A DNA stretch of 64,000 nt from Streptomyces halstedii. Lineage in GTDB: Bacteria; Actinomycetota; Actinomycetes; Streptomycetales; Streptomycetaceae. Below are positions 1 through 51,950 of this stretch, in pieces (the first letter of the stretch is position 1; the number at the start of each line of letters is the position of its first letter). The stretch covers positions 1 through 64,000 of the forward strand of contig JOAZ01000018.1 in NCBI GenBank assembly GCA_000720535.1, written 5' to 3'. The notes below the pieces were generated by a model. That model ran no database searches. It had not been told where the DNA came from and was given only the letters and a program-made list of their open reading frames with translations. Made by a program: the position numbers and the translations under genes.

Positions 1-1785
1 AGCCATCCGCCCCGCGAACACCCCCGACCCACCCAACAACTCCGCAGCCATCCCCACCCACTGCGAACCCTGACCCGGAAACACCAACACCGCACGACCC
101 GACGACACCCCGTCGCCCCGCACCAGCCCCGGCACCGACCGGCCCTCGGCCAGGGCTTTCACGCCGTCGATCAGCCGGTCCGGGCCGGTTCCCACGACCA
201 CGGCCCGCCGCTCGAAGGCGGTACGCGTGAGGGCGAGCGCGCGGCCGGTGTCGGCGGCCCGCAGGGGTCCGGGGCCGGCGCTCAGGTGTGCCAGCAGCCG
301 GGCCGCCTGGTCGCGCAGCGCCTCGTCGGTACGTGCCGACAGCACCCAGGGCAGCGGGTACGCATCGCCGGGGGCAGGTTCGGCCACCGGTTCGGCTTCC
401 TCCGCCGGGGCCTGTTCCAGGATCAGATGGACGTTGGTGCCGCTGACGCCGAAGGCGGACACCCCGGCCCGGCGCGGGCGCCCCGTGTCGTCCCAGGCGC
501 GGGCCTCGGAGAGGACTTCCACGGCTCCCGACGCCCAGTCCACCATGGGCGTCGGCCGGTCCGCGTGCAGGGTTCTGGGCAGTTCGCCGTGCCCGATCGC
601 CAGCACCATCTTGATGACGCCGCCGACTCCGGCCGCCGCCGAGGTGTGGCCGATGTTCGACTTCAACGAGCCCAGCCGCAAAGGCCGTTCGGTGGGCCGC
701 CCCTGGCCGTACGTGGCCAGCAGGGCCTGGGCCTCGATGGGGTCGCCGAGGGTGGTACCGGTGCCGTGCGCCTCCACCACGTCCACCTCGGACGCCGTCA
801 CCCCCGCGTCCGCGAGCGCCGCCCGGATCACCCGCTGCTGCGACGGACCGCTGGGCGCCGTCAGGCCGTTGCTCGCACCGTCCTGGTTCGTGGCCGAACC
901 GCGGACGACGGCCAGCACCGGATGTCCGTTGCGGCGGGCGTCCGACAGCCGCTCCAGCAGGAGGACGCCGGCACCCTCGGACCAGCCGGTTCCGTCCGCG
1001 TCGGCCCCGAACGCCTTGCAGCGGCCGTCGGCCGCCAGCGCGCGCTGGCGGCTGAACGCCACGAACGCGTCGGGGGTCGCCATCACCGACACCCCACCCG
1101 CCAGGGCCAGCGTGCAGTCACCCGCCCGCAGGGCCCTGATCGCCAGGTGCAGGGCCACCAGGGAGGAGGAGCAGGCGGTGTCCACGGTCACCGCGGGCCC
1201 TTCTAGGCCGAGGGTGTAGGCGATCCGGCCGGAGACCACACTGCTCGCGGTCCCGGTGTCCAGCAGGCCCTGGACGTCGGGGAGGTGGCGCGAGCCCGCG
1301 CCGTAGCCGTTGCCGATCGCCCCGAGGAAGACACCCGTTCCGGTGTGCCGCAGCGTGCGGGGGTCGATCGCGGCCCGCTCGACCGCCTCCCAGGCGGTCT
1401 CCAGCGCCAGCCGCTGCTGGGGGTCGGTCGCCAGGGCCTCGCGGGGCGAGATGCCGAAGAACTCCGCGTCGAAATCGGCCGCGTCATGGAGGAAGCCGCC
1501 GTGCCGGGTGTAGGAGGTGCCGGGGTGGTCGGGGTCCGGGTCGTAGAGGCCCTCCAGGTCCCAGCCACGGTTGACCGGCCAGGCGGAGACCGCGTCGGCT
1601 CCCCGGGAGACCAGATCCCACAGGAGCTCGGGTGTGTGGGCGCCGCCGGGATAGCGGCAGGCCATGGAGACGACGGCGATCGGTTCGTGGCGGGCCTGCT
1701 CGGCCTCGCGCAGCTGCCTCCGGGCGTCACCGAGGTCCGCGGTGGCGCGCCTGAGGTAGTCGAGCAGCTTCTTGTCGTCGGACAT
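1..1785 (-). CDS. type I modular polyketide synthase, second protein (partial)
   Basis: Second protein of a modular PKS; only its first 595 codons lie in the window and it runs off the left edge. It starts with the class 1 docking peptide [18 protein letters not shown], at ATG 1785, 16 bp after the stop of the upstream PKS gene and behind a GAGAGAG-type ribosome site. A ketosynthase domain follows (about residues 35-460) with the active-site DTACSSS, the EAHGTGT histidine and the KSNIGH histidine, all intact. After a linker the acyltransferase begins (GQGSQWVGM) and is cut off before its substrate-selecting motif. It should take the chain from the C-terminal docking region of the preceding protein. 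Extender specificity, reductive domains and chain release cannot be seen. Confidence 0.93.
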
Positions 1786-1801
1786 CAGTGCCAGCTCTCT
1801 C

Positions 1802-16225
<14,424 letters not shown>

Positions 16226-16432
16226 CGTGTCTTCGGACTCCTTCACGGCGAGCAGGACCATCAGTCACCGGACCGTGGCGGGGCGCGCCCGCTCCCACGG
16301 GTCGCGCGTCGGCCGGGACGCCTTCGTCATGCCCGGCGTGTACCGCCACCGGACCTGCGACGTCGATCTTGCCCACGTCGCATAGCGGCCCGATATCGCA
16401 GGCCGCGACACGACGCGGGTACGGGGAACGGG

Positions 16433-16469
16433 CGGGGCGCGGAGCAGCGGAAGAGCCGCGCGCGCCCCG
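16433..16469 (-). terminator. intrinsic-type hairpin after the ALAS gene
   Basis: A 9-bp perfect inverted repeat (CGGGGCGCG with CGCGCCCCG) with a 19-nt loop begins 10 bp beyond the ALAS stop codon. It probably separates ALAS transcription from the PKS promoter, which must lie in 16226-16432. No T-tract is visible, as is common in Streptomyces. Confidence 0.5.
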
Positions 16470-16478
16470 TGGGGCGGG

Positions 16479-17723
16479 TCAGCCGTCCGCGCCGGGGAGC
16501 CGGTGCGGGCCCGGAGCCCGCGCCACCCCGAGTTCCCGCCAGATCCCGTCCAGTGCCGCGACGAACTCCTCGACCTCCGCGGGCTCGTGGACGGCGCCGG
16601 GTGCGCTCCTGAGGATCTCCTGGCCCTCGCGCACGCTCGGCGCGTTGATCGCCTGTACGTAGATGCCATGGCGTGCCAGCAGCAGGGCGGAGATCCGCCG
16701 GGCGAGCGCGTCGTCCCCGACGAAGACCGAGACGATGTGGGATCCGTCGGAGACGAAGGGGATGCCGTGTTCCCTGAGCAGCCGGTGCGTCAGTCGCGCG
16801 TTCTCGCGGAGCCGGTCGCGTTCCTCGTCCGAGGTGCGCAGGTGCCGGACCGCGGCGAGCGCGCCCGCCACGACCGCCGGCGGCAGGGCGGTGGTGAAGA
16901 TGAAGGAGCGGGAGAGGCCGCGCACGGCGTCGACCAGTTCGGCGGGACCGGCGATGTATCCGCCGGTGGTGCCGAATCCCTTGGCGAGCGTTCCCATGAT
17001 GACGGTGAACTCGTCCGCGATGCCCAGGCTCGCGGCGATACCGGCTCCCTCCGGCCCGTACATCCCGACCGCGTGAACCTCGTCGAGGAACGTCATCGCA
17101 CCGTGCTCGCGGGCGATCCGGGCAATTTCGGCGAGCGGGGCGACATCACCCGCCATCGAGTAGACCGACTCCATGACGATCATCTTCGGACGGTCAGGAT
17201 CGGTGGCGGATATCAGCTCTTCCAGATGCACCATGTCGTTGTGGCGGAAAATGCGTTTCTCGGCGCCGCTGTGGCGGAGTCCGTCGATGATCGAGGCGTG
17301 GTTCATCTCGTCGGAGAAGACGACGCAGTTCCCCAGCCGGCCGGCGAGGACCGTGAGGGCTCCGTCGTTGGCGGTGTATCCGGAGGTGAAGAGAAGGGCG
17401 TCCGCCTTGCCGTGCAGATCCGCCAGTTCCTTTTCCAGCAGCACGTGGTAGTGGTTGGTCCCGCCGATGTTCCGGGAGCCGCCCGAGCCCGCGCCGTACT
17501 CGTCGAGGGCTTCGCGGGTCGCCGCCAGAACCAGCGGGTGCTGACCCATTCCCAGGTAGTCGTTGCTGCACCACACGCTGATCTCGGAGGTGACCCCGTC
17601 CCGCAGGCTCCGGGCCGCCGGAAATTTCCCGGCGAGCCGGCCGATCTCAAGAAACTCCCGTTTCGCCTCCGGTGACCCACCTTTCCCCATATGCCGCGAG
17701 AAGAGCTCCAGGTAATGGTTCAT
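16479..17723 (-). CDS. 5-aminolevulinate synthase (C5N-pathway type)
   Basis: PLP-dependent alpha-oxoamine synthase of 414 aa that condenses glycine with succinyl-CoA to 5-aminolevulinate. Seen: the N-terminus MNHYLELFSRHMGK typical of ALAS, the substrate-site SRNIGGTNHYH, DEVHAVGMYG, and the PLP lysine in GTLAKGFGTTGG. Streptomycetes make haem ALA by the C5 glutamyl-tRNA route, so an ALAS in this phylum usually belongs to secondary metabolism, where ALA is cyclised to 2-amino-3-hydroxycyclopentenone (C5N). The adjacent PKS and two divergent ligases support that role. ATG 17723 has AAGGG six bases upstream; the in-frame extension to 17873 lacks family similarity. A haem-only role is unlikely. 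Confidence 0.9.
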   Translation of the reverse strand: MNHYLELFSRHMGKGGSPEAKREFLEIGRLAGKFPAARSLRDGVTSEISVWCSNDYLGMGQHPLVLAATREALDEYGAGSGGSRNIGGTNHYHVLLEKELADLHGKADALLFTSGYTANDGALTVLAGRLGNCVVFSDEMNHASIIDGLRHSGAEKRIFRHNDMVHLEELISATDPDRPKMIVMESVYSMAGDVAPLAEIARIAREHGAMTFLDEVHAVGMYGPEGAGIAASLGIADEFTVIMGTLAKGFGTTGGYIAGPAELVDAVRGLSRSFIFTTALPPAVVAGALAAVRHLRTSDEERDRLRENARLTHRLLREHGIPFVSDGSHIVSVFVGDDALARRISALLLARHGIYVQAINAPSVREGQEILRSAPGAVHEPAEVEEFVAALDGIWRELGVARAPGPHRLPGADG

Positions 17724-17933
17724 GACGACCCTTTTCTCCGAAGACCAAGCCGATGCGGGGGCCGAACCGGTAGACGGCATTGTCTCAGAGCGGAATATCA
17801 CTTCGATGGCGCGGCCTGCGACAATTCGATGTCTCCCGCGCATCCGTTTCTTCAATTCAGAATCCTGGTACACCTGATTTGCGTGTTGTAGGCTCTGCGG
17901 AAATTCCTCGACACGGCACCACTGGAGTTTCCT
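17724..17933. promoter_or_regulatory. divergent promoter region, ALAS / ligases
   Basis: This 210-bp non-coding, comparatively AT-rich gap separates divergent ALAS (minus) and ligase (plus) genes, so it must hold both promoters. I could not pick a convincing -35/-10 pair. The 7-bp SARP repeats found at the oxy promoters were not seen here. Confidence 0.5.
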
Positions 17934-19478
17934 ATGCCGTCGAACGAAACGTATGTCAGCCAGATCCTTCAGGTGATCGCCGCGGAACCGGAGAAAGTTC
18001 TCCTGTCCTGGCGCGACGAGACGCTCACCGCGGCGGAGCTGACCACCCTGGTCCGGTCAGCCGCGCAGGCCCTGCACCAGCACGCCGGCGGGGTCGACGG
18101 CGGGGCCGTGGTCGCCGTCCTGACCGTCACCAACACCGGCCCGACCCTGGTCCTGCGGTACGCCGCGAATCTGGCCGGGGCCACGGTGGTCCATCTGCAC
18201 ACCACCAACGCGGTCGATCCGGCGGACCACCTGGCCGCCGGCGCCAAGCTCAAGATCCTCCGGGAGACCGGTGCGACGTACCTGGCCGTCGACGCGGAGA
18301 ACGTCACGGCCGCCCGTGAGCTGCGCGAGCGGCTGGGCACTCCGCTCACCCTCGTCGCCCTCGGCGACCTGGGCCCCGATGTCCTGGACCTGACGGCCGG
18401 GGACCCGGACGCGCTGGACCCGGCCGCCATAGAGATCGGACCCGACCGGCCCGCGGTGGTGACCTACACGAGCGGGACGACCGGTGAGCCGAAGGGCATC
18501 GCCTTCGACTTCCGGGCCCGCAACGGTTTCATATCCGCCGGACTCCAGATGGGCTGGCGGTCGGTCTACCTGGCCTGCCTTCCGCTGAGCCACTCCAGCG
18601 GCGCCACGGCCGACGACTCACTCGCGTCCGGCGGCTCGGTGGTCCTGCGGGACGGCTTCGACCCGGGTGACGTGCTGCGCTGCGTAGAACGGCACGGGAT
18701 CACGCGGATGCTGCTCTCCCCTCCCCAGCTGTACCTGCTCATGGACCATCCGGAGGTGGGCTCGACCGACCTGTCCCGCCTCCAGATGGTCACGTACGTG
18801 GGCTCCCCCGCGTCCCCCGAGCGCCTGGGCGAGGCGGTCAAGGTCTTCGGCGAGGTGCTGATCCAGGTGTACGCCACCAGTGAGGCGGGCTTCGTCAGCA
18901 TGCTCTCGCCCGCCGAGCACCACGAACCCCGGCTGCGGGCCACGGTCGGCCGGCCGATGCCCGGCTGGGTGCGGATCACCGATCCGGACGACCACCGCGA
19001 CCTGCCGCCCGGCGAGACCGGCGAGGTCTGCGTACGGTCGCCGTTCACGATGAGTGAGTACGTGGCCGAGCCCGAACTCACCGCTCGGACCGTGCGGGAC
19101 GGCTGGGTGCACACCGGTGACCTCGGCTTCGTCGACGACGACGGCTACCTTCACCTGCGCGGCCGGATCGGCGAGGTCATCAAGACCAATGGCATCAAGA
19201 TCCATCCGGTGACCGTGGAGAACGCCTTCCTCGCCCATCCCGACGTCGTGCAGGCCGCCGTCTTCTGCGTCCGGGACCGGGACAGGATCGAGCACCTGCA
19301 CGCCGCCGTGGTGCCGCGGGAGGCGGGCACGGCCGACCCCGGCGGACTGGCCGAACACATCCGGGCCGCCCTCTCGCCCAAGCACGTCCCCGCGCGGATC
19401 CACGTCCGCCGCGCTCTGCCCCTCACCGGCGTCGGCAAACCGGACAAGGCGCGGCTGGCCGCGGAAGCGAGCGGGTGA
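17934..19478 (+). CDS. class I adenylate-forming ligase (candidate C5N amide synthetase)
   Basis: A 514-aa AMP-binding enzyme. Visible motifs are the P-loop YTSGTTGEPKG (about residue 180), YATSEAG in place of the usual YGxTE, VHTGDLGFVDDDGYL, and the C-terminal lysine region GVGKPDKARL. It is shorter and more divergent than the ligase encoded next, suggesting a specialised substrate. In characterised C5N pathways one ligase makes the CoA ester of 5-ALA, which cyclises, and a second joins the amine of C5N to the polyketide acid. By divergence this one better fits the amide-forming role, but the assignment between the two is inference. GGAG six bases upstream fixes the start. The stop is 6 bp before the next gene. 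Confidence 0.82.
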   Translation: MPSNETYVSQILQVIAAEPEKVLLSWRDETLTAAELTTLVRSAAQALHQHAGGVDGGAVVAVLTVTNTGPTLVLRYAANLAGATVVHLHTTNAVDPADHLAAGAKLKILRETGATYLAVDAENVTAARELRERLGTPLTLVALGDLGPDVLDLTAGDPDALDPAAIEIGPDRPAVVTYTSGTTGEPKGIAFDFRARNGFISAGLQMGWRSVYLACLPLSHSSGATADDSLASGGSVVLRDGFDPGDVLRCVERHGITRMLLSPPQLYLLMDHPEVGSTDLSRLQMVTYVGSPASPERLGEAVKVFGEVLIQVYATSEAGFVSMLSPAEHHEPRLRATVGRPMPGWVRITDPDDHRDLPPGETGEVCVRSPFTMSEYVAEPELTARTVRDGWVHTGDLGFVDDDGYLHLRGRIGEVIKTNGIKIHPVTVENAFLAHPDVVQAAVFCVRDRDRIEHLHAAVVPREAGTADPGGLAEHIRAALSPKHVPARIHVRRALPLTGVGKPDKARLAAEASG

Positions 19479-19484
19479 ACCCCC

Positions 19485-21080
19485 ATGGCCCTCTCCGTGG
19501 CGTCCATACTGGCCGAATCCGCGCTACGGCGACCGGAGCACCCGGCGGTCGTGTCCGGTACGCGGAAGATCACCTACCGCGAACTGTGGGACGAGGCGCG
19601 GAGGTACGCGGCGGCGCTCCGCGCGCGGGGCATCGGTCCCGACGACAAGGTGGCGCTGCTGCTGCCCAGCACACCGCACTTCCCGGCGGCCTACTTCGGT
19701 GTGCTCGCGCTCGGCGCGATCGCGGTGCCGGTCCACGCCCTGCTCCGGGCGGACGAGATCGCGTACGTCCTGAAGGACTCCGGGGCGGCGGCGCTGATCT
19801 GCGCCGCCCCGCTCCTGGCCGAGGGCGGCAGGGCGGCGGAGACGGCCGGCACGCCCGTGCTCACCGTCATGGAAGAAGAAGGGGACGAGGAGGAGTGGCG
19901 CACCCACGCGCCACGGCTGGACGTGCTCGCGGCGCGGAGCACCCCGATCGACCGTCAGGTGCCGCGCGCCCCCGAGGACATCGCGGTGATCCTCTACACC
20001 TCCGGCACCACCGGCCGGCCCAAGGGCGCCCTGCTCACCCATCTCAACGTGGTGATGAACGTCGACACGACCATGCTGTCGCCGTTCGACTTCACCGCGG
20101 ACGACGTCCTGCTCGGCTGTCTGCCCCTGTTCCACAGCTTCGGTCAGATCTGCGGCATGAACACCTGCTTCCGGGCGGGGGCGACCCTGGTGCTGATGCC
20201 CCGGTTCGACGGGCCGGGCGCGCTGGACCTCATGGTGCGGGAGGGCTGCACGCTGTTCATGGGGGTCCCGACGATGTACACGGCACTCCTCGACGCGGCC
20301 CGCGCCGACCCGCGCAGGCCCGCGCTCGACCGCGCGTTCTCCGGCGGCGCCGCGCTGCCGGTGGCGGTCCTGGACGCGTTCCGGGAGACGTTCGGCTGCC
20401 CGGTCCTCGAAGGGTACGGGCTGACCGAGACGTCTCCGGTGGTGGCGTACAACCAGAAGGCGTGGCCGCTCAGACCCGGCACAGTGGGCCGGCCGATCTG
20501 GGGCGTCGAGGTCGAGATCGCCAGAGCCGACGTGGAGGGCAGGATCGAGCTGGTGCCCGTCGGCGAGACGGGGGAGATCGTCATCCGGGGGCACAACGTG
20601 ATGGCCGGCTACCTGAACCGGCCGGAGGCGACCGCCGAGGCCGTCGTGGACGGCTGGTTCCGCTCGGGTGACCTCGGCGTCAAGGACGACGAGGGCTATC
20701 TGTCCGTCGTCGACCGCAAGAAGGACGTGGTGCTGCGCGCCGGGTACAACGTCTACCCGCGCGAGGTGGAGGACGTCCTGGCCCGCCACCCGGCGATCGC
20801 CCAGGCAGCCGTCGTCGGGCTCCCCCACCCCGTGCACGGCGAGGAGGTGTGCGCGGTGGTGAGGGCCCGCCCGGGCACGGCGCCGGGCCCGCCCCTCGGC
20901 GCCGAGATCGTCGCCTGGAGCAGGGAACGGATGGCGCCGTACAAGTACCCGCGCCGGGTGGAGTTCGTGGACGCCTTCCCCCTCGGCCCCAGCGGCAAGG
21001 TACTCAAACGGGAGCTGGTCGCCCGGCTGAGCGCCGCGGATCCGGACCGGCCGCGGGACGGCGCGCCGCGCCCGCGCTGA
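19485..21080 (+). CDS. acyl-CoA ligase (candidate 5-ALA:CoA ligase)
   Basis: A 531-aa canonical acyl-CoA synthetase. Seen: YTSGTTGRPKGALLTH, GYGLTETSPV, GWFRSGDLGVKDDEGYL, the hinge region DRKKDVVLRAGYNVYPREVE and the catalytic lysine PSGKVLKREL. It is translationally coupled to the preceding ligase (6-bp gap). In a C5N set this would activate 5-aminolevulinate as its CoA thioester so that it cyclises to the five-membered ring. The alternative is activation of a PKS starter acid for the AT-ACP loading module, which motifs alone cannot exclude. Confidence 0.85.
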   Translation: MALSVASILAESALRRPEHPAVVSGTRKITYRELWDEARRYAAALRARGIGPDDKVALLLPSTPHFPAAYFGVLALGAIAVPVHALLRADEIAYVLKDSGAAALICAAPLLAEGGRAAETAGTPVLTVMEEEGDEEEWRTHAPRLDVLAARSTPIDRQVPRAPEDIAVILYTSGTTGRPKGALLTHLNVVMNVDTTMLSPFDFTADDVLLGCLPLFHSFGQICGMNTCFRAGATLVLMPRFDGPGALDLMVREGCTLFMGVPTMYTALLDAARADPRRPALDRAFSGGAALPVAVLDAFRETFGCPVLEGYGLTETSPVVAYNQKAWPLRPGTVGRPIWGVEVEIARADVEGRIELVPVGETGEIVIRGHNVMAGYLNRPEATAEAVVDGWFRSGDLGVKDDEGYLSVVDRKKDVVLRAGYNVYPREVEDVLARHPAIAQAAVVGLPHPVHGEEVCAVVRARPGTAPGPPLGAEIVAWSRERMAPYKYPRRVEFVDAFPLGPSGKVLKRELVARLSAADPDRPRDGAPRPR

Positions 21081-23256: not shown

Positions 23257-23937
23257 ATGGATGACAAAGTGATCACCGTCCTCGTCGTCGACGACCAGAC
23301 GCTGCTCAGGGAGGCGCTGTGCGACGTGCTCGCCGCCCAGTCGGACATCAAGGTGGTCGGCGGCTTCGCCAATGGGGAGGCGGCCGTGCACATGGCCGGC
23401 GAGCTGCGCCCCCAGGTGATCCTTCTGGACGGGGCGGAGCCGTACGGAGTCGTCTCCGGTGTCGAGGCCATGCACCGTGTGTCGCCGCGTTCCCAGTGCA
23501 TCGTCCTGACCTCGTTCCAGGATCCGACGCTCATCCAACAGGTGCTGCACATGCGCGCGAGCGGGTTCCTGACCAAGAATTTACGACGTGCTGAGGTGCT
23601 CGCCGCGATCCGCAGTGTGACCAGTCATCCGGGGCAAATATTCATGTCCGTGCCGAAGGAAAGCGTGCCGGCCCTGCTGAATACCTCCACGGTACAACTC
23701 TCCGCCCGCGAGCTGCAGGTGATGGAGAACGTGGCGCGCGGGCTGAGTAACAGTCAGATTGCCACTCGGCTCACCATCACCGAAGCCACCGTGAAACGCC
23801 ATTTGAGCAATGTCTTCGAAAAACTGGGCGCGGTTTCCCGGATCGATGCCGTGAACAAGGCGAAATCCATGCTGATCCTCAGATTCTCCCGGAAAACCGG
23901 TCCGTACCTACGGCCGGAGGTCCGTCTTGAGATGTAG
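23257..23937 (+). CDS. otcG: LuxR/NarL-type response regulator, probable OTC cluster regulator OtcG
   Basis: A 226-aa protein with an N-terminal receiver domain (acidic pair D12-D13, phosphoacceptor D58 in ILLDG, Thr in IVLTS, Lys in GFLTK) and a C-terminal LuxR HTH (LSARELQVMENVARGLSNSQIATRL, EATVKRHLSNVFEKLGA). Its position beside otrA matches the LuxR-family regulator otcG reported as a positive regulator of oxytetracycline production. No histidine kinase is nearby, so it is an orphan regulator here. All receiver residues look intact, so phosphorylation remains possible. GGAGG five bases before ATG 23257 supports the start. It is convergent with otrA across a strong hairpin. Confidence 0.85.
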   Translation: MDDKVITVLVVDDQTLLREALCDVLAAQSDIKVVGGFANGEAAVHMAGELRPQVILLDGAEPYGVVSGVEAMHRVSPRSQCIVLTSFQDPTLIQQVLHMRASGFLTKNLRRAEVLAAIRSVTSHPGQIFMSVPKESVPALLNTSTVQLSARELQVMENVARGLSNSQIATRLTITEATVKRHLSNVFEKLGAVSRIDAVNKAKSMLILRFSRKTGPYLRPEVRLEM

Positions 23938-24002: not shown

Positions 24003-25988
24003 TCAGACACGTTTGAGCATGTGAAGGATGTACTCGTCCCGGTTGAGCGGGTTGGGGCCCTCGGGTCGCGGTCGCACGGGCGGTTGTCCGGCAGCGGGCC
24101 GGTAGCCCCGGTGCTCGGCCAGGAACACCCCCTCTCCCCCGGTCAGTCCGGGAACCCGCTGGTGGAAGTCGTGCACGAGCCTGGTCGGCATCGTGCCCTC
24201 CAGCCGGAAGATGTCCCTTTCGGCCGTGGGCACGCCGGGAGTCGCGCCCGACTCCGCGAGTTTCGCCAGCACCAGGCTGAGCCGGGCGGCGGGAACCTCC
24301 AGTTCGAAGGAGCTGACCGGCTCGTGCACCTGGGTTCCGGCCTGTCGGAGCGCGTCCATCAGGACCAGCGGTGTGGCCTCGCGGAAGTCGTCGGCCGCGC
24401 TGACCGGACTGGCGAAACCGGTACGGGTCAGGGTGACGGCGCAGTCGGTCACCTGCCAGCCGAACAGACCGTGCCGCAGTGTGGTGTGCACCGTCTCCTC
24501 GATGGCCTTGTGGAAGGCCAGGGGCAGCGAGCCCAGTTCCACCGCCAGACGGAATGTGATGCCCGCGTCCGGCTCGGCCGGTCCGACGTGCAGACCCACG
24601 GTCGCCCAGAAGTAGTTGTGCATGCGCGTGTCCAACTCGATCAACGCCTCGCCCGTCCCCACGGGCTTCTCGATGCAGACCGTGCGGGTGGGGTCGAAGC
24701 GGACCCGTACGCCGAAGGACTCCGCGAGCGTGCTGACGAGGATCTCCTTCTGCACCTCTCCGTACAGGCGTACCACGGCGCCGGCCGCGTTCTCCTCGTC
24801 CCGCCGCAGGTCGATCGAGGGGTCCTGCTCGTCCAGCATGCGCAGCGCGGCGTGCAGCCGCCCGGCGTCCGCCGGACGCTCCGGTCGGATGACGGTCTCC
24901 AGGCTGGGCGGTGCGAAGAAGTTCCGCGGCGGAGGTCCGTCGAGGTGCCCGGCCCGGTCACCGACCCGTACGTCCTTCAGCCCCCGGGCCTGCGCGATGT
25001 CCCCGGCGGTCGCCCGGGTATCGCTGGTGGCCGACCCGCGCTCGAAGACCCGCAGGGCGGTGATCCGCCCTGCGTGCTCGGTGACCCGGCCGGTGTGGTC
25101 GACGCGGTGCAGCGTCACCGAGTCGCGGGTTCCCAGCGTGCCGGAGATCAGCCGCAGGTACGCGACGGTCTCGCCGCGCACTCCGCGGTCCACCTTGAAC
25201 ACGGTGGCTCGCAGCGGGGCGTCCTGCGAGCCGTGCACGGATGGCAGCAACTCCCGGATACCGCACACCAGGTGGTCCAGGCCCTCGCCGGTCAGCGCTG
25301 ACCCGAGAAACACCGGGTGCACCAGGCCACGGGCGGTCTGGGAGGCCAGTTCCTCCGCGTAGTCCCTCTCGGTCAGTACGCGCTCCTCGTCCAGGTAGGC
25401 GGTGAGGAAGGCGTCGTTGCGGTCTGCCAGCAGCTCACCGACCCGGACGGCGAACTCCGGGTCCGTGTCCGGGCCGAGCGCGGTCGCGCGGGCCTGTGGC
25501 GTGCCGGCGTCCGCCGCGGCGGACAGCGCCACCGCGGCGGGGGTCAGCCGGTCGCGGATCTCCCGCAGCACACCGTCGGGGCGCGCGCCGTTCCTGTCGA
25601 TCTTGTTGACGAAGACCAGCGTGGGGATGTCCAGCCTGCGCAGGGTCCGCATCAGGATGCGGGTCTGCGGCTGGACACCCTCGACGGCCGAAACCACCAG
25701 AACGGCACCGTCGAGTACCCTGAGCGCCCGCTCGACCTCGGAGATGAAGTCGGCGTGACCCGGGGTGTCGATGAGGTTCACCTTGAGATCGTCCAGGACG
25801 AACGTGGCCACGGCGGACCGGATGGTGATGCCACGCTGCCGCTCAAGCCCCATCGAGTCGGTCTGCGTGGTGCCGGCGTCCACACTGCCGACCTCGTCGA
25901 TCACTCCGGTGCGGTGCAGCAGGCGCTCGGTGAGGCTGGTCTTGCCGGCGTCAACGTGGGCCAGGATGCCCAGATTCAGCTTGTTCAT
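24003..25988 (-). CDS. otrA: tetracycline resistance ribosomal protection protein OtrA
   Basis: EF-G-like GTPase of 661 aa that displaces tetracyclines from the ribosomal A site and so protects the producer. GTPase motifs are complete: AHVDAGKTSLTERLL (G1), RGITIRSAV (G2), DTPGHADF (G3) and NKID (G4), followed by domain II and EF-G domain III-V-like segments. The length fits the TetM/OtrA family (about 640-665 aa). Position at the edge of the oxy genes matches S. rimosus otrA. It is the last gene of the minus-strand oxyS-oxyT-otrA run, with a 160-bp leader after oxyT that may hold its own promoter. No good ribosome site is within 12 bp of the ATG. Confidence 0.96.
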   Translation of the reverse strand: MNKLNLGILAHVDAGKTSLTERLLHRTGVIDEVGSVDAGTTQTDSMGLERQRGITIRSAVATFVLDDLKVNLIDTPGHADFISEVERALRVLDGAVLVVSAVEGVQPQTRILMRTLRRLDIPTLVFVNKIDRNGARPDGVLREIRDRLTPAAVALSAAADAGTPQARATALGPDTDPEFAVRVGELLADRNDAFLTAYLDEERVLTERDYAEELASQTARGLVHPVFLGSALTGEGLDHLVCGIRELLPSVHGSQDAPLRATVFKVDRGVRGETVAYLRLISGTLGTRDSVTLHRVDHTGRVTEHAGRITALRVFERGSATSDTRATAGDIAQARGLKDVRVGDRAGHLDGPPPRNFFAPPSLETVIRPERPADAGRLHAALRMLDEQDPSIDLRRDEENAAGAVVRLYGEVQKEILVSTLAESFGVRVRFDPTRTVCIEKPVGTGEALIELDTRMHNYFWATVGLHVGPAEPDAGITFRLAVELGSLPLAFHKAIEETVHTTLRHGLFGWQVTDCAVTLTRTGFASPVSAADDFREATPLVLMDALRQAGTQVHEPVSSFELEVPAARLSLVLAKLAESGATPGVPTAERDIFRLEGTMPTRLVHDFHQRVPGLTGGEGVFLAEHRGYRPAAGQPPVRPRPEGPNPLNRDEYILHMLKRV

Positions 25989-50531: not shown

Positions 50532-50568
50532 CGGGTCGACTCACACGGCATCGCTGCAAGTCGACCCG
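50532..50568. repeat. hairpin upstream of the SUKH gene
   Basis: CGGGTCGACT and AGTCGACCCG form a 10-bp perfect inverted repeat with a 17-nt loop, ending 20 bp before the SUKH start codon. It may be a terminator for incoming transcription or an operator. Confidence 0.4.
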
Positions 50569-50588
50569 TGAAGGGACGGAGTAGGGAC

Positions 50589-51125
50589 ATGATTGACAGT
50601 GATGGCCTCGCTGGCCTGATCCGCTTGTTGCCGCCCCCGGCCAGAGCAGGGGCAACGGTGCACTGGGAGGCTGTGCAAACGGCCTGGAGACTCGTGTTCC
50701 CGCCAGACTTCAAGGCGTTCCTCGCGCAGTACGGGGATGGCCTGTCGGATCTGGATCTCAGTGTGTTGGTTCCTTCGACCGTCACTCCGGACACCTGTGA
50801 CGAACCGGGAGCTCCGAAAGGCGGCATGGGGTTCATCACCGCAGACGCTCGAGCTACGTGGATGGACACCAATCCCAACGACAACGATGCAGCAGTCGGG
50901 GACCTGGTGGTCTGGGGAGCGGATGGTAGCGGTGACCTGTACTGCTGGCTTACCCAAGGTGCACCGGAGGACTGGCCAGTGGTCCTCTTCAGCCACGGCG
51001 ACGACACCTGGACGCGCTTCGACTGCGGCATGACGCAGTTCCTTTACAGGATGTTGAGCGCAGACGGCGGGGCCAAGGCCATGCAAGACTCTGCTCTGTG
51101 GGGCGCGGGCTTGCACGGGCGCTGA
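50589..51125 (+). CDS. SMI1/KNR4 (SUKH) family protein
   Basis: A 178-aa protein of the SUKH superfamily: VHWEAVQTAWRLVFPPDFKAFLAQYGDGL (the typical entry motif), GFITADARATWMD, DLVVWGADGSGDLYCWLT and WPVVLFSHGDDTWTRFDCGMTQFLY. Members are best known as immunity proteins against contact-dependent or polymorphic toxins. No toxin gene accompanies it, so it may be an orphan immunity gene moved by the surrounding element. The GGAGTAGGG run precedes ATG 50589. Intact frame. Confidence 0.82.
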   Translation: MIDSDGLAGLIRLLPPPARAGATVHWEAVQTAWRLVFPPDFKAFLAQYGDGLSDLDLSVLVPSTVTPDTCDEPGAPKGGMGFITADARATWMDTNPNDNDAAVGDLVVWGADGSGDLYCWLTQGAPEDWPVVLFSHGDDTWTRFDCGMTQFLYRMLSADGGAKAMQDSALWGAGLHGR

Positions 51126-51141
51126 AGTTGCCTGGGCTGGC

Positions 51142-51950
51142 TCATCTGGTGAGTCGGCGATAGCAGATGAGGGTGCGGGCGATGCGGGTGAAGGCGAGGA
51201 AGTGGTCGGCCTTGCGTTCGTAGCGTCGGTGGAGGCGGCGGCAGCCGCGAGCCAGGCCATGGTGCGTTCGACGGTCCAGCGGTGGCGGCCCAGCCGTTGG
51301 GAGGACTCGACTCCCTTGCGGGCGATGCGGTGGGTGATGCCGCGTTCGCGTAACCATCGCCGCAGGTGGGCGTAGTCGTGGCCCTTGTCTGCGTGGAGTT
51401 TGCCGGGCTTGCGTCGTCGGCGGCCGCGGTGCGAGCGGATCGGTGGGATGGCCTTCACGAGCGGCATGAGGGTCTGGCTGTCGTGCAGGTTGGCCGCGGA
51501 AATGCCGATGGATATGGGCAGACCTGATCGTTCCGTGATCAGGTGGGTTTTCGAGCCGTACTTGCCTCGGTCGCCAGGATTCGGACCTGTCCGGTCCCCC
51601 TTTTCAGGGCCCGCATGTTCACCGAGTCGATCGCGCAACGCGACCAGTCCAGCTCGCCACGGGCACCGAGTTCGTCGAGGACCAGACGGTGCGGCTTGGC
51701 CCACACCCTGGCCTTCGACCACTCCGAGAACCGGCGGTGGGCGGTCGCTCCGGACGGGCCGAACGACGCCGAAGGCAGCTGCTGCCAGGTACAACCCGAC
51801 GTGGCCACGAAGACGATCGCCGCCAGCACTTCCGGTCACCGTGCCGACGCGCCGACCACCACCCTGCGGCCGCGACGGCGCCTCCGGCACCACCCGCTGG
51901 AACAACTCCCACAACTCGTCCGGCACCACCCGCTCAACGATCCCCGCCAT
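51142..51950 (-). pseudogene. IS5-family transposase, frameshifted
   Basis: The protein is spread over several frames: start MAGIVERVVPDELWELFQRVVPEAP in one, LAAIVFVATSGCTWQQLPSASFGPSGATAHRRF and WSRCAIDSVNMRALKRG in another, then RGKYGSKTHLITERSGLPISIGISAANLHDSQ to RWTVERTMAWL, and the C-terminus LHRRYERKADHFLAFTRIARTLICYRRL in a third. One shift in the middle could be programmed, as in related IS, but the N-terminal and C-terminal ones look like decay. Probably inactive. Confidence 0.8.

What the first reader, a model, noticed from the sequence alone, without database searches (positions are those of the whole stretch)
1..21080. Modular type I PKS coupled to a complete C5N set beside the OTC cluster
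An ALAS and two adenylate-forming ligases form the exact three-enzyme set known to make 2-amino-3-hydroxycyclopentenone and attach it as an amide (ECO-02301, moenomycin, asukamycin and annimycin-type pathways). Here the set neighbours a PKS whose visible modules have KR or no reduction and no DH, unlike the polyene PKSs that usually carry the cap. A hydroxy/keto polyketide with a C5N amide would be unusual.
Basis: partly seen in the sequence, partly recalled or inferred. Interest (0 to 1): 0.75.

Follow-up and report, generated by a model that had tools for sequence, protein, structure and literature searches.

The report
Known bafilomycin antibiotic gene cluster
The genes at the left end of this window are one end of a well-studied type of gene cluster for bafilomycin, an antifungal macrolide whose B1 form is known to carry the C5N amide, so the seemingly unusual polyketide is a familiar one that happens to lie next to oxytetracycline genes.

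Summary
In detail: the window's left end holds a modular type I PKS, an ALAS and two adenylate-forming ligases (to 21,080), about 3 kb from oxytetracycline-type genes. The reading as something unusual is not. This is the 5' part of a bafilomycin (plecomacrolide) cluster, cut by the contig end at base 1. The rest lies on contigs C40 and C33 of the same genome. The three map in order onto one 72-kb stretch of a Kitasatospora sp. CB01950 scaffold, mostly at 89-95% DNA identity. Gene order matches the bafilomycin cluster of S. griseus DSM 2608 (PMC3679948). There are a loading AT-ACP, 11 extension modules and a thioesterase; the DH and ER domains missing from the window sit in later modules. Of nine extension ATs whose motif could be read, malonyl-type ones are at modules 2 and 6, as published. 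Methoxymalonyl genes, TEII and the fumarate pair orf2/orf3 are present. In this pathway C5N is attached after macrolactone release, through fumarate, giving bafilomycin B1, so the thioesterase does not argue against C5N. Module 8's AT is incomplete in the assembly. Among 392 sampled genus genomes only this one has both marker genes of the two clusters. Ordinary; low interest.

The parts
1..1785 (-). 5' end of the second PKS gene (bafAII-like): docking domain, KS of extension module 4 and the first residues of its AT; runs off contig C18
   Evidence: Pfam; 94.1% identical to CB01950 contig C23 at 305224-307011; first 99 bases identical to the left end of contig C40
1802..16261 (-). first PKS gene (bafAI-like), 4819 aa: loading AT-ACP, module 1 KS-AT-KR-ACP, module 2 KS-AT(malonyl motif)-KR-ACP, module 3 KS-AT-ACP (keto)
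   Evidence: Pfam, motifs; 88.6% identical over 4854 aligned positions to CB01950
16479..17723 (-). 5-aminolevulinate synthase (bafZ-like), 414 aa, expected to form C5N together with the acyl-CoA ligase
   Evidence: TIGR01821; 92.8% identical to CB01950; published bafilomycin ALS primers match 19/20, 19/20 and 39/46
17724..17933 (.). 210-base divergent intergenic stretch between the ALAS and the amide synthetase (head-to-head arrangement)
   Evidence: gene coordinates; head-to-head organization of C5N genes is reported for the moenomycin/bafilomycin branch (PMC4525017 passage)
17934..19478 (+). amide synthetase (bafY-like), 514 aa
   Evidence: Pfam; 88% identical to K. griseola JCM 3339 and CB01950; published length 513 aa
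19485..21080 (+). acyl-CoA (aminolevulinate) ligase (bafX-like), 531 aa
   Evidence: Pfam; 89% (K. griseola) and 92% (CB01950) identical; published ACL-F primer matches 45/45

Best explanation
This is the 5' end of a bafilomycin biosynthetic cluster. The PKS starts from an acyl unit loaded by the AT-ACP (isobutyryl in bafilomycin). It runs 11 extensions over five PKS proteins, and the thioesterase of the last protein releases the 16-membered plecomacrolide, bafilomycin A1. Methoxymalonyl-ACP is supplied by the bafB-F-like genes. After release, Orf3 adenylates fumarate and Orf2 puts it on the C21 hydroxyl (bafilomycin C1). The ALAS and the acyl-CoA ligase make C5N, and the amide synthetase couples it to the fumarate carboxyl (bafilomycin B1). 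Shown here: genes, domain order, readable AT motifs, synteny and sequence identity. Inferred from published work on S. lohii and S. griseus: the reactions and the product. Not shown: production by this strain.
For: Colinear DNA match of C18:2-21047, C40 (right to left) and C33:658-20234 to one 72-kb stretch of a Kitasatospora sp. CB01950 scaffold. All 21 protein queries cut from the three contigs for this cluster have their best match there in the right order at 83.5-95.4% identity; two of them (3' part of PKS3, 3' part of PKS4) align only from residue 216-217 on, that is without their AT parts. Domain series: load AT-ACP; KR; KR; none; KR; KR; DH-KR; DH-KR; DH-ER-KR; KR; DH-KR; DH-KR-TE, with 4+6+1 = 11 extension KS, equal to the published one starter plus eleven extenders on five genes of 4, 3, 2, 2 and 1 modules with TE in the fifth. 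HAFH (malonyl-type) motif at extension modules 2 and 6, not in the other 7 extension ATs that could be read, equal to published AT3 and AT7 counted from the loading module. Methoxymalonyl genes, AfsR-type regulator, TEII, LuxR-like gene, Orf2 and Orf3 follow in the order of Table 1 of PMC3679948. Published oligos: ACL-F 45/45, FkbH-F 37/37, FkbH-R 40/40 (the last two degenerate), against 26, 24, 24 for one shuffle each.
Against: The three contigs are not joined in the assembly; about 0.55 kb (C18-C40) and, by extrapolation, 0.34 kb (C40-C33) are missing in AT repeats. The module 8 AT on C40 is incomplete: Pfam finds only part of it, the frame changes within it, and about 250 bases present in CB01950 are absent there; draft error or a real break is not decided, and a real break would stop the pathway. 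The first 657 bases of C33 (module 10 AT) match the module 8 AT of CB01950 best, at 82.5%. The CB01950 scaffold has 46 N within 340001-360000. Orf2 and Orf3 have only weak general-family matches; their assignment rests on synteny. No metabolite data for this strain, and CB01950 is not shown here to be a producer.
Confidence: 0.94

Rival explanations
1. A close plecomacrolide relative is made instead of bafilomycin B1, such as L-155,175 or a hygrobafilomycin.
For: L-155,175 has a closely related PKS with different AT specificities and a related C5N set (PMC4525017 passages). S. varsoviensis is reported to make hygrobafilomycins as well as bafilomycins C1 and D (PMC7385001 passage).
Against: Malonyl-type ATs at extension modules 2 and 6 and the full bafB-F set match the bafilomycin clusters; for the L-155,175 hca cluster the paper says that, unlike others, it does not carry all methoxymalonyl genes.
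Confidence: 0.08
2. A new hydroxy/keto polyketide with C5N, made without DH or ER steps.
For: Within the window alone the modules carry only KR or no reduction.
Against: The PKS continues on C40 and C33 with DH and ER domains and is colinear with a bafilomycin-type locus.
Confidence: 0.01
3. The ligases activate a PKS starter unit and the ALAS serves heme synthesis.
For: AMP-ligases near loading modules can activate starters (recalled).
Against: The genome has a glutamyl-tRNA reductase (TIGR01035, 268.2 bits over 209.55, C2) and one ALAS over the cut-off; both ligases are 88-92% identical to those beside the ALAS in two Kitasatospora loci.
Confidence: 0.02

Closest known systems
[quoted passage not shown] PMC3679948) and of S. 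lohii ATCC BAA-1276 (bafX-Z, bafAI-AV, bafB-H, orf1-3; PMC7827423)
   Same: Gene order, similar protein lengths, module series, malonyl AT positions, methoxymalonyl genes, fumarate pair, C5N triad, TE; nine published oligos match
   Different: The flank beyond bafX is an oxytetracycline-type cluster here. A full-length comparison with KC514471 or GU390405 was not possible with the collections at hand
Kitasatospora sp. CB01950 locus (NZ_LISX01000003.1)
   Same: Same 21 queries in the same order; 19 of 21 at 87.6-95.4% protein identity, two at 83.5 and 84.2%
   Different: No OtrA and no 23257-regulator match in the 95 kb examined
Kitasatospora griseola JCM 3339 locus (NZ_BMRI01000045.1)
   Same: ALAS, both ligases and the start of PKS1 in the same arrangement, 87-90% identical; a bafB-like gene at 90% elsewhere in that genome
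   Different: Only 16.6 kb examined; later modules not compared
L-155,175 (hca) cluster, S. hygroscopicus ATCC 31955
   Same: Bafilomycin-type PKS with a related ALAS (PMC4525017 passages)
   Different: Reported AT specificities differ and methoxymalonyl genes are not complete there; sequence not compared

Membership tests
Bafilomycin biosynthetic cluster | Loading AT-ACP plus 11 extension modules on five PKS genes, last with TE | tested here: met
   on three unjoined contigs, module 8 AT incomplete in the assembly
Bafilomycin biosynthetic cluster | Reduction series KR, KR, none, KR, KR, DH-KR, DH-KR, DH-ER-KR, KR, DH-KR, DH-KR | tested here: met
   the series expected from the bafilomycin structure is recalled
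Bafilomycin biosynthetic cluster | Malonyl ATs at published modules 3 and 7 (counting the loading module as 1) | tested here: met
   HAFH at extension modules 2 and 6, in 2 of 9 extension ATs read; modules 4 and 8 could not be read; published in PMC3679948
Bafilomycin biosynthetic cluster | Isobutyrate-specific loading AT | tested here: inconclusive
   AT-ACP loader present and similar PKS1 in CB01950; substrate specificity not tested
Bafilomycin biosynthetic cluster | Methoxymalonyl-ACP genes (3HCDH, ACP, acyl-CoA DH, FkbH, O-MT) | tested here: met
Bafilomycin biosynthetic cluster | Fumarate transfer and adenylation genes (orf2, orf3) | tested here: met
   present by position, 91.1% and 93.5% identical to CB01950; general-family matches weak
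Bafilomycin biosynthetic cluster | Makes bafilomycins | not testable with these tools
   needs culture and LC-MS
C5N triad (ALAS, acyl-CoA ligase, amide synthetase) | All three genes adjacent, head-to-head as in the bafilomycin/moenomycin branch | tested here: met
   arrangement named in PMC4525017
C5N triad (ALAS, acyl-CoA ligase, amide synthetase) | Enzymes form and attach C5N | not testable with these tools
   needs enzyme assays or a mutant

The most novel reading that the evidence does not exclude
The bafilomycin and oxytetracycline clusters, about 3 kb apart, form a functional pair in this strain: an antifungal and an antibacterial inherited and perhaps regulated together, with the LuxR-type regulator at 23257-23937 between them acting on both.
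Probability: 0.04. Interest if true: 0.4.

Novelty: already known. Interest (0 to 1): 0.1.

Why it matters
It removes a false lead: the apparent new C5N polyketide belongs to a characterised family of V-ATPase inhibitors. It also points to a further strain whose genome predicts bafilomycin B1 next to oxytetracycline genes, which matters when crude extracts of such a strain are tested.

Tried and rejected
Species: S. varsoviensis was considered because it has an oxytetracycline-type cluster (PMC12386333 passages) and is reported to make bafilomycins (PMC7385001 passage). The thiovarsolin cluster of that species includes a TfuA protein (PMC6511847 passages), and no TfuA match was found in this genome (0 of 1). 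Left undecided, leaning against.

New polyketide without DH or ER: rejected. ALAS for heme and ligases for a starter: rejected. C40 joined to C18 by its left end: rejected, because both contigs begin with the same 99 bases in the same direction; the synteny puts the right end of C40 next to C18.

Papers: searches gave search listings. Of PMC3679948 parts 1-3 of 4 were read. PMC7827423, PMC7385001, PMC6511847, PMC12386333 and PMC4525017 were seen as passages only. PMC5108699 is not held. Two papers held all five terms; I did not read them and make no claim that the adjacency of the two clusters is unpublished. A tree of the ligases was planned but not made; the co-occurrence count stands in its place.

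Full report
What is in the window. The window is the start of contig C18 (147,111 bases) of a 7.74-Mb genome in 105 contigs. On the minus strand lie a 4819-aa PKS (1802-16261) and the beginning of a second PKS gene (1-1785), which runs off the contig. An ALAS (16479-17723, -) and two AMP-ligases (17934-19478 and 19485-21080, +) follow. OtrA lies at 24003-25988, and seven of ten further frames tested fit a tetracycline-type cluster.

The rest of the PKS. The KS search of the genome gave 34 matches. Four type I KS lie on the left of C18, six on C40 (31,138 bases) and one near the left end of C33. C18 and C40 begin with the same 99 bases, part of an AT domain, in the same direction; this looks like a repeat at which the assembly broke. 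Pfam gives, in order: loading AT-ACP, modules 1 and 2 with KR, module 3 without reduction; module 4 KS on C18, its KR and ACP on C40, module 5 KR, module 6 DH-KR, module 7 DH-KR; module 8 DH-ER-KR with only part of its AT, module 9 KR; module 10 DH-KR and module 11 DH-KR-TE on C33.

Reference locus. The two best by identity were Kitasatospora griseola JCM 3339 and Kitasatospora sp. CB01950 (88%). In both, ALAS and both ligases are 87-92% identical and in the same arrangement. The CB01950 scaffold holds the whole locus (with 46 N within 340001-360000). C18:2-21047, then C40 from right to left, then C33:658-20234 map along it in order at 89-95% DNA identity, apart from one 147-base piece at 88% and short unaligned stretches. 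The breaks correspond to 549 bases between C18 and C40 and, by extrapolation, 343 between C40 and C33; the first 657 bases of C33 matched the module 8 AT of CB01950 best, at 82.5%. All 21 protein queries from the three contigs match there in the expected order at 83.5-95.4% identity, two of them without their AT part; OtrA and the regulator at 23257 had no hit.

Identity of the pathway. Table 1 of PMC3679948 lists for the bafilomycin cluster of S. griseus DSM 2608: acyl-CoA ligase (partial), amide synthetase (513 aa), ALAS (415), five PKS genes, 3-hydroxyacyl-CoA dehydrogenase (297), ACP (94), acyl-CoA dehydrogenase (364), FkbH-like (367), O-methyltransferase (221), AfsR-type regulator (610), thioesterase II (254), LuxR-like (118), a transferase (321) and a ligase (360). 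The same series is found here; the frames used were 514 and 414 aa for the amide synthetase and ALAS and 296, 93, 371, 367, 228, 627, 253, 122, 342 and 359 aa for the ten on C33 (starts not refined). The published distribution of modules over the five PKS genes (4, 3, 2, 2, 1, counting the loader) and the TE agree. The malonyl-type HAFH motif occurs at extension modules 2 and 6 and in none of the other seven extension ATs that could be read (1, 3, 5, 7, 9, 10, 11); modules 4 and 8 could not be read. These are the published AT3 and AT7. Nine of the twelve oligos printed in that paper were matched to the three contigs: ACL-F 45/45, FkbH-F 37/37, FkbH-R 40/40, ALS-F 19/20, ALS-R1 19/20, ALS-R2 39/46, DH12-F 36/38, DH12-R 31/39, FkbH knockout-F 36/39; one shuffle of each reached 14-27 in C18 plus C33.

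How it works. In S. lohii, Orf3 activates fumarate, Orf2 transfers it to the C21 hydroxyl of bafilomycin A1 to give C1, and BafY couples C5N, made by BafX and BafZ, to give B1 (PMC7827423 passage). The ALAS is unlikely to serve heme: the genome has a glutamyl-tRNA reductase and one ALAS over the cut-off.

Ligase grouping. Of 88 loci examined (80, 8; a few may be the same place twice, such as L015 and L106), 12 hold an ALAS hit over 350 bits, and all 12 have relatives of both ligases next to it (amide synthetase 53-90%, acyl-CoA ligase 72-94%). The other 76 have no such ALAS within the DNA held; several of those loci are short. Five of the 12 have an amide synthetase at 65.7-90.1% identity to ours; seven form a second set at 53-58%.

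The OTC neighbour. In a sample of 392 genus genomes, the amide synthetase was found in 9 at E <= 1e-150 and an OtrA relative in 17 at E <= 1e-200, own genome included in both; only the own genome is in both lists. Many of the OtrA relatives are only 53-57% identical and need not mark oxytetracycline clusters. The two clusters side by side are most simply a local coincidence of two mobile pathways (inference). [quoted passage not shown]

Limits. The contigs are not joined, the module 8 AT is incomplete in the assembly (frame change, about 250 bases fewer than CB01950), and no metabolite of this strain is known to me.

Verdict. Real, correctly seen, and already known: a bafilomycin cluster split by a draft assembly. 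Interest 0.1.

Noticed in passing
G000 contig C40, about 10.58-11.24 kb (L006): The AT of PKS module 8 is incomplete: partial Pfam match, a frame change, and about 250 bases fewer than CB01950, near a repeated AT stretch; draft error or real break not decided.
   Followed up: partly
G000 contig C33, 1-657 (L008): This AT piece of module 10 matches the module 8 AT of CB01950 best (82.5%), unlike the DNA after it, which is about 93% to module 10; AT exchange or a chimeric assembly.
   Followed up: no
L015, L016, L019, L106-L109: A second set of ALAS plus two-ligase triads (amide synthetase 53-58%, acyl-CoA ligase 72-74%, ALAS 72-74% identical); L015, L016 and L019 also show a modular PKS, an orf2-like gene (39-41%) and a TEII. 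Product not identified here.
   Followed up: partly
window 23257-23937 (+): LuxR-type response regulator between the bafilomycin end and otrA, with no match in the CB01950 stretch.
   Followed up: partly
window 50541-51950 (-): DDE transposase beyond the type II KS genes of the oxytetracycline-type cluster.
   Followed up: no
G000 contig C11, 98404-100409: A second pair of adjacent KS matches on one strand looks like another type II PKS in this genome.
   Followed up: no
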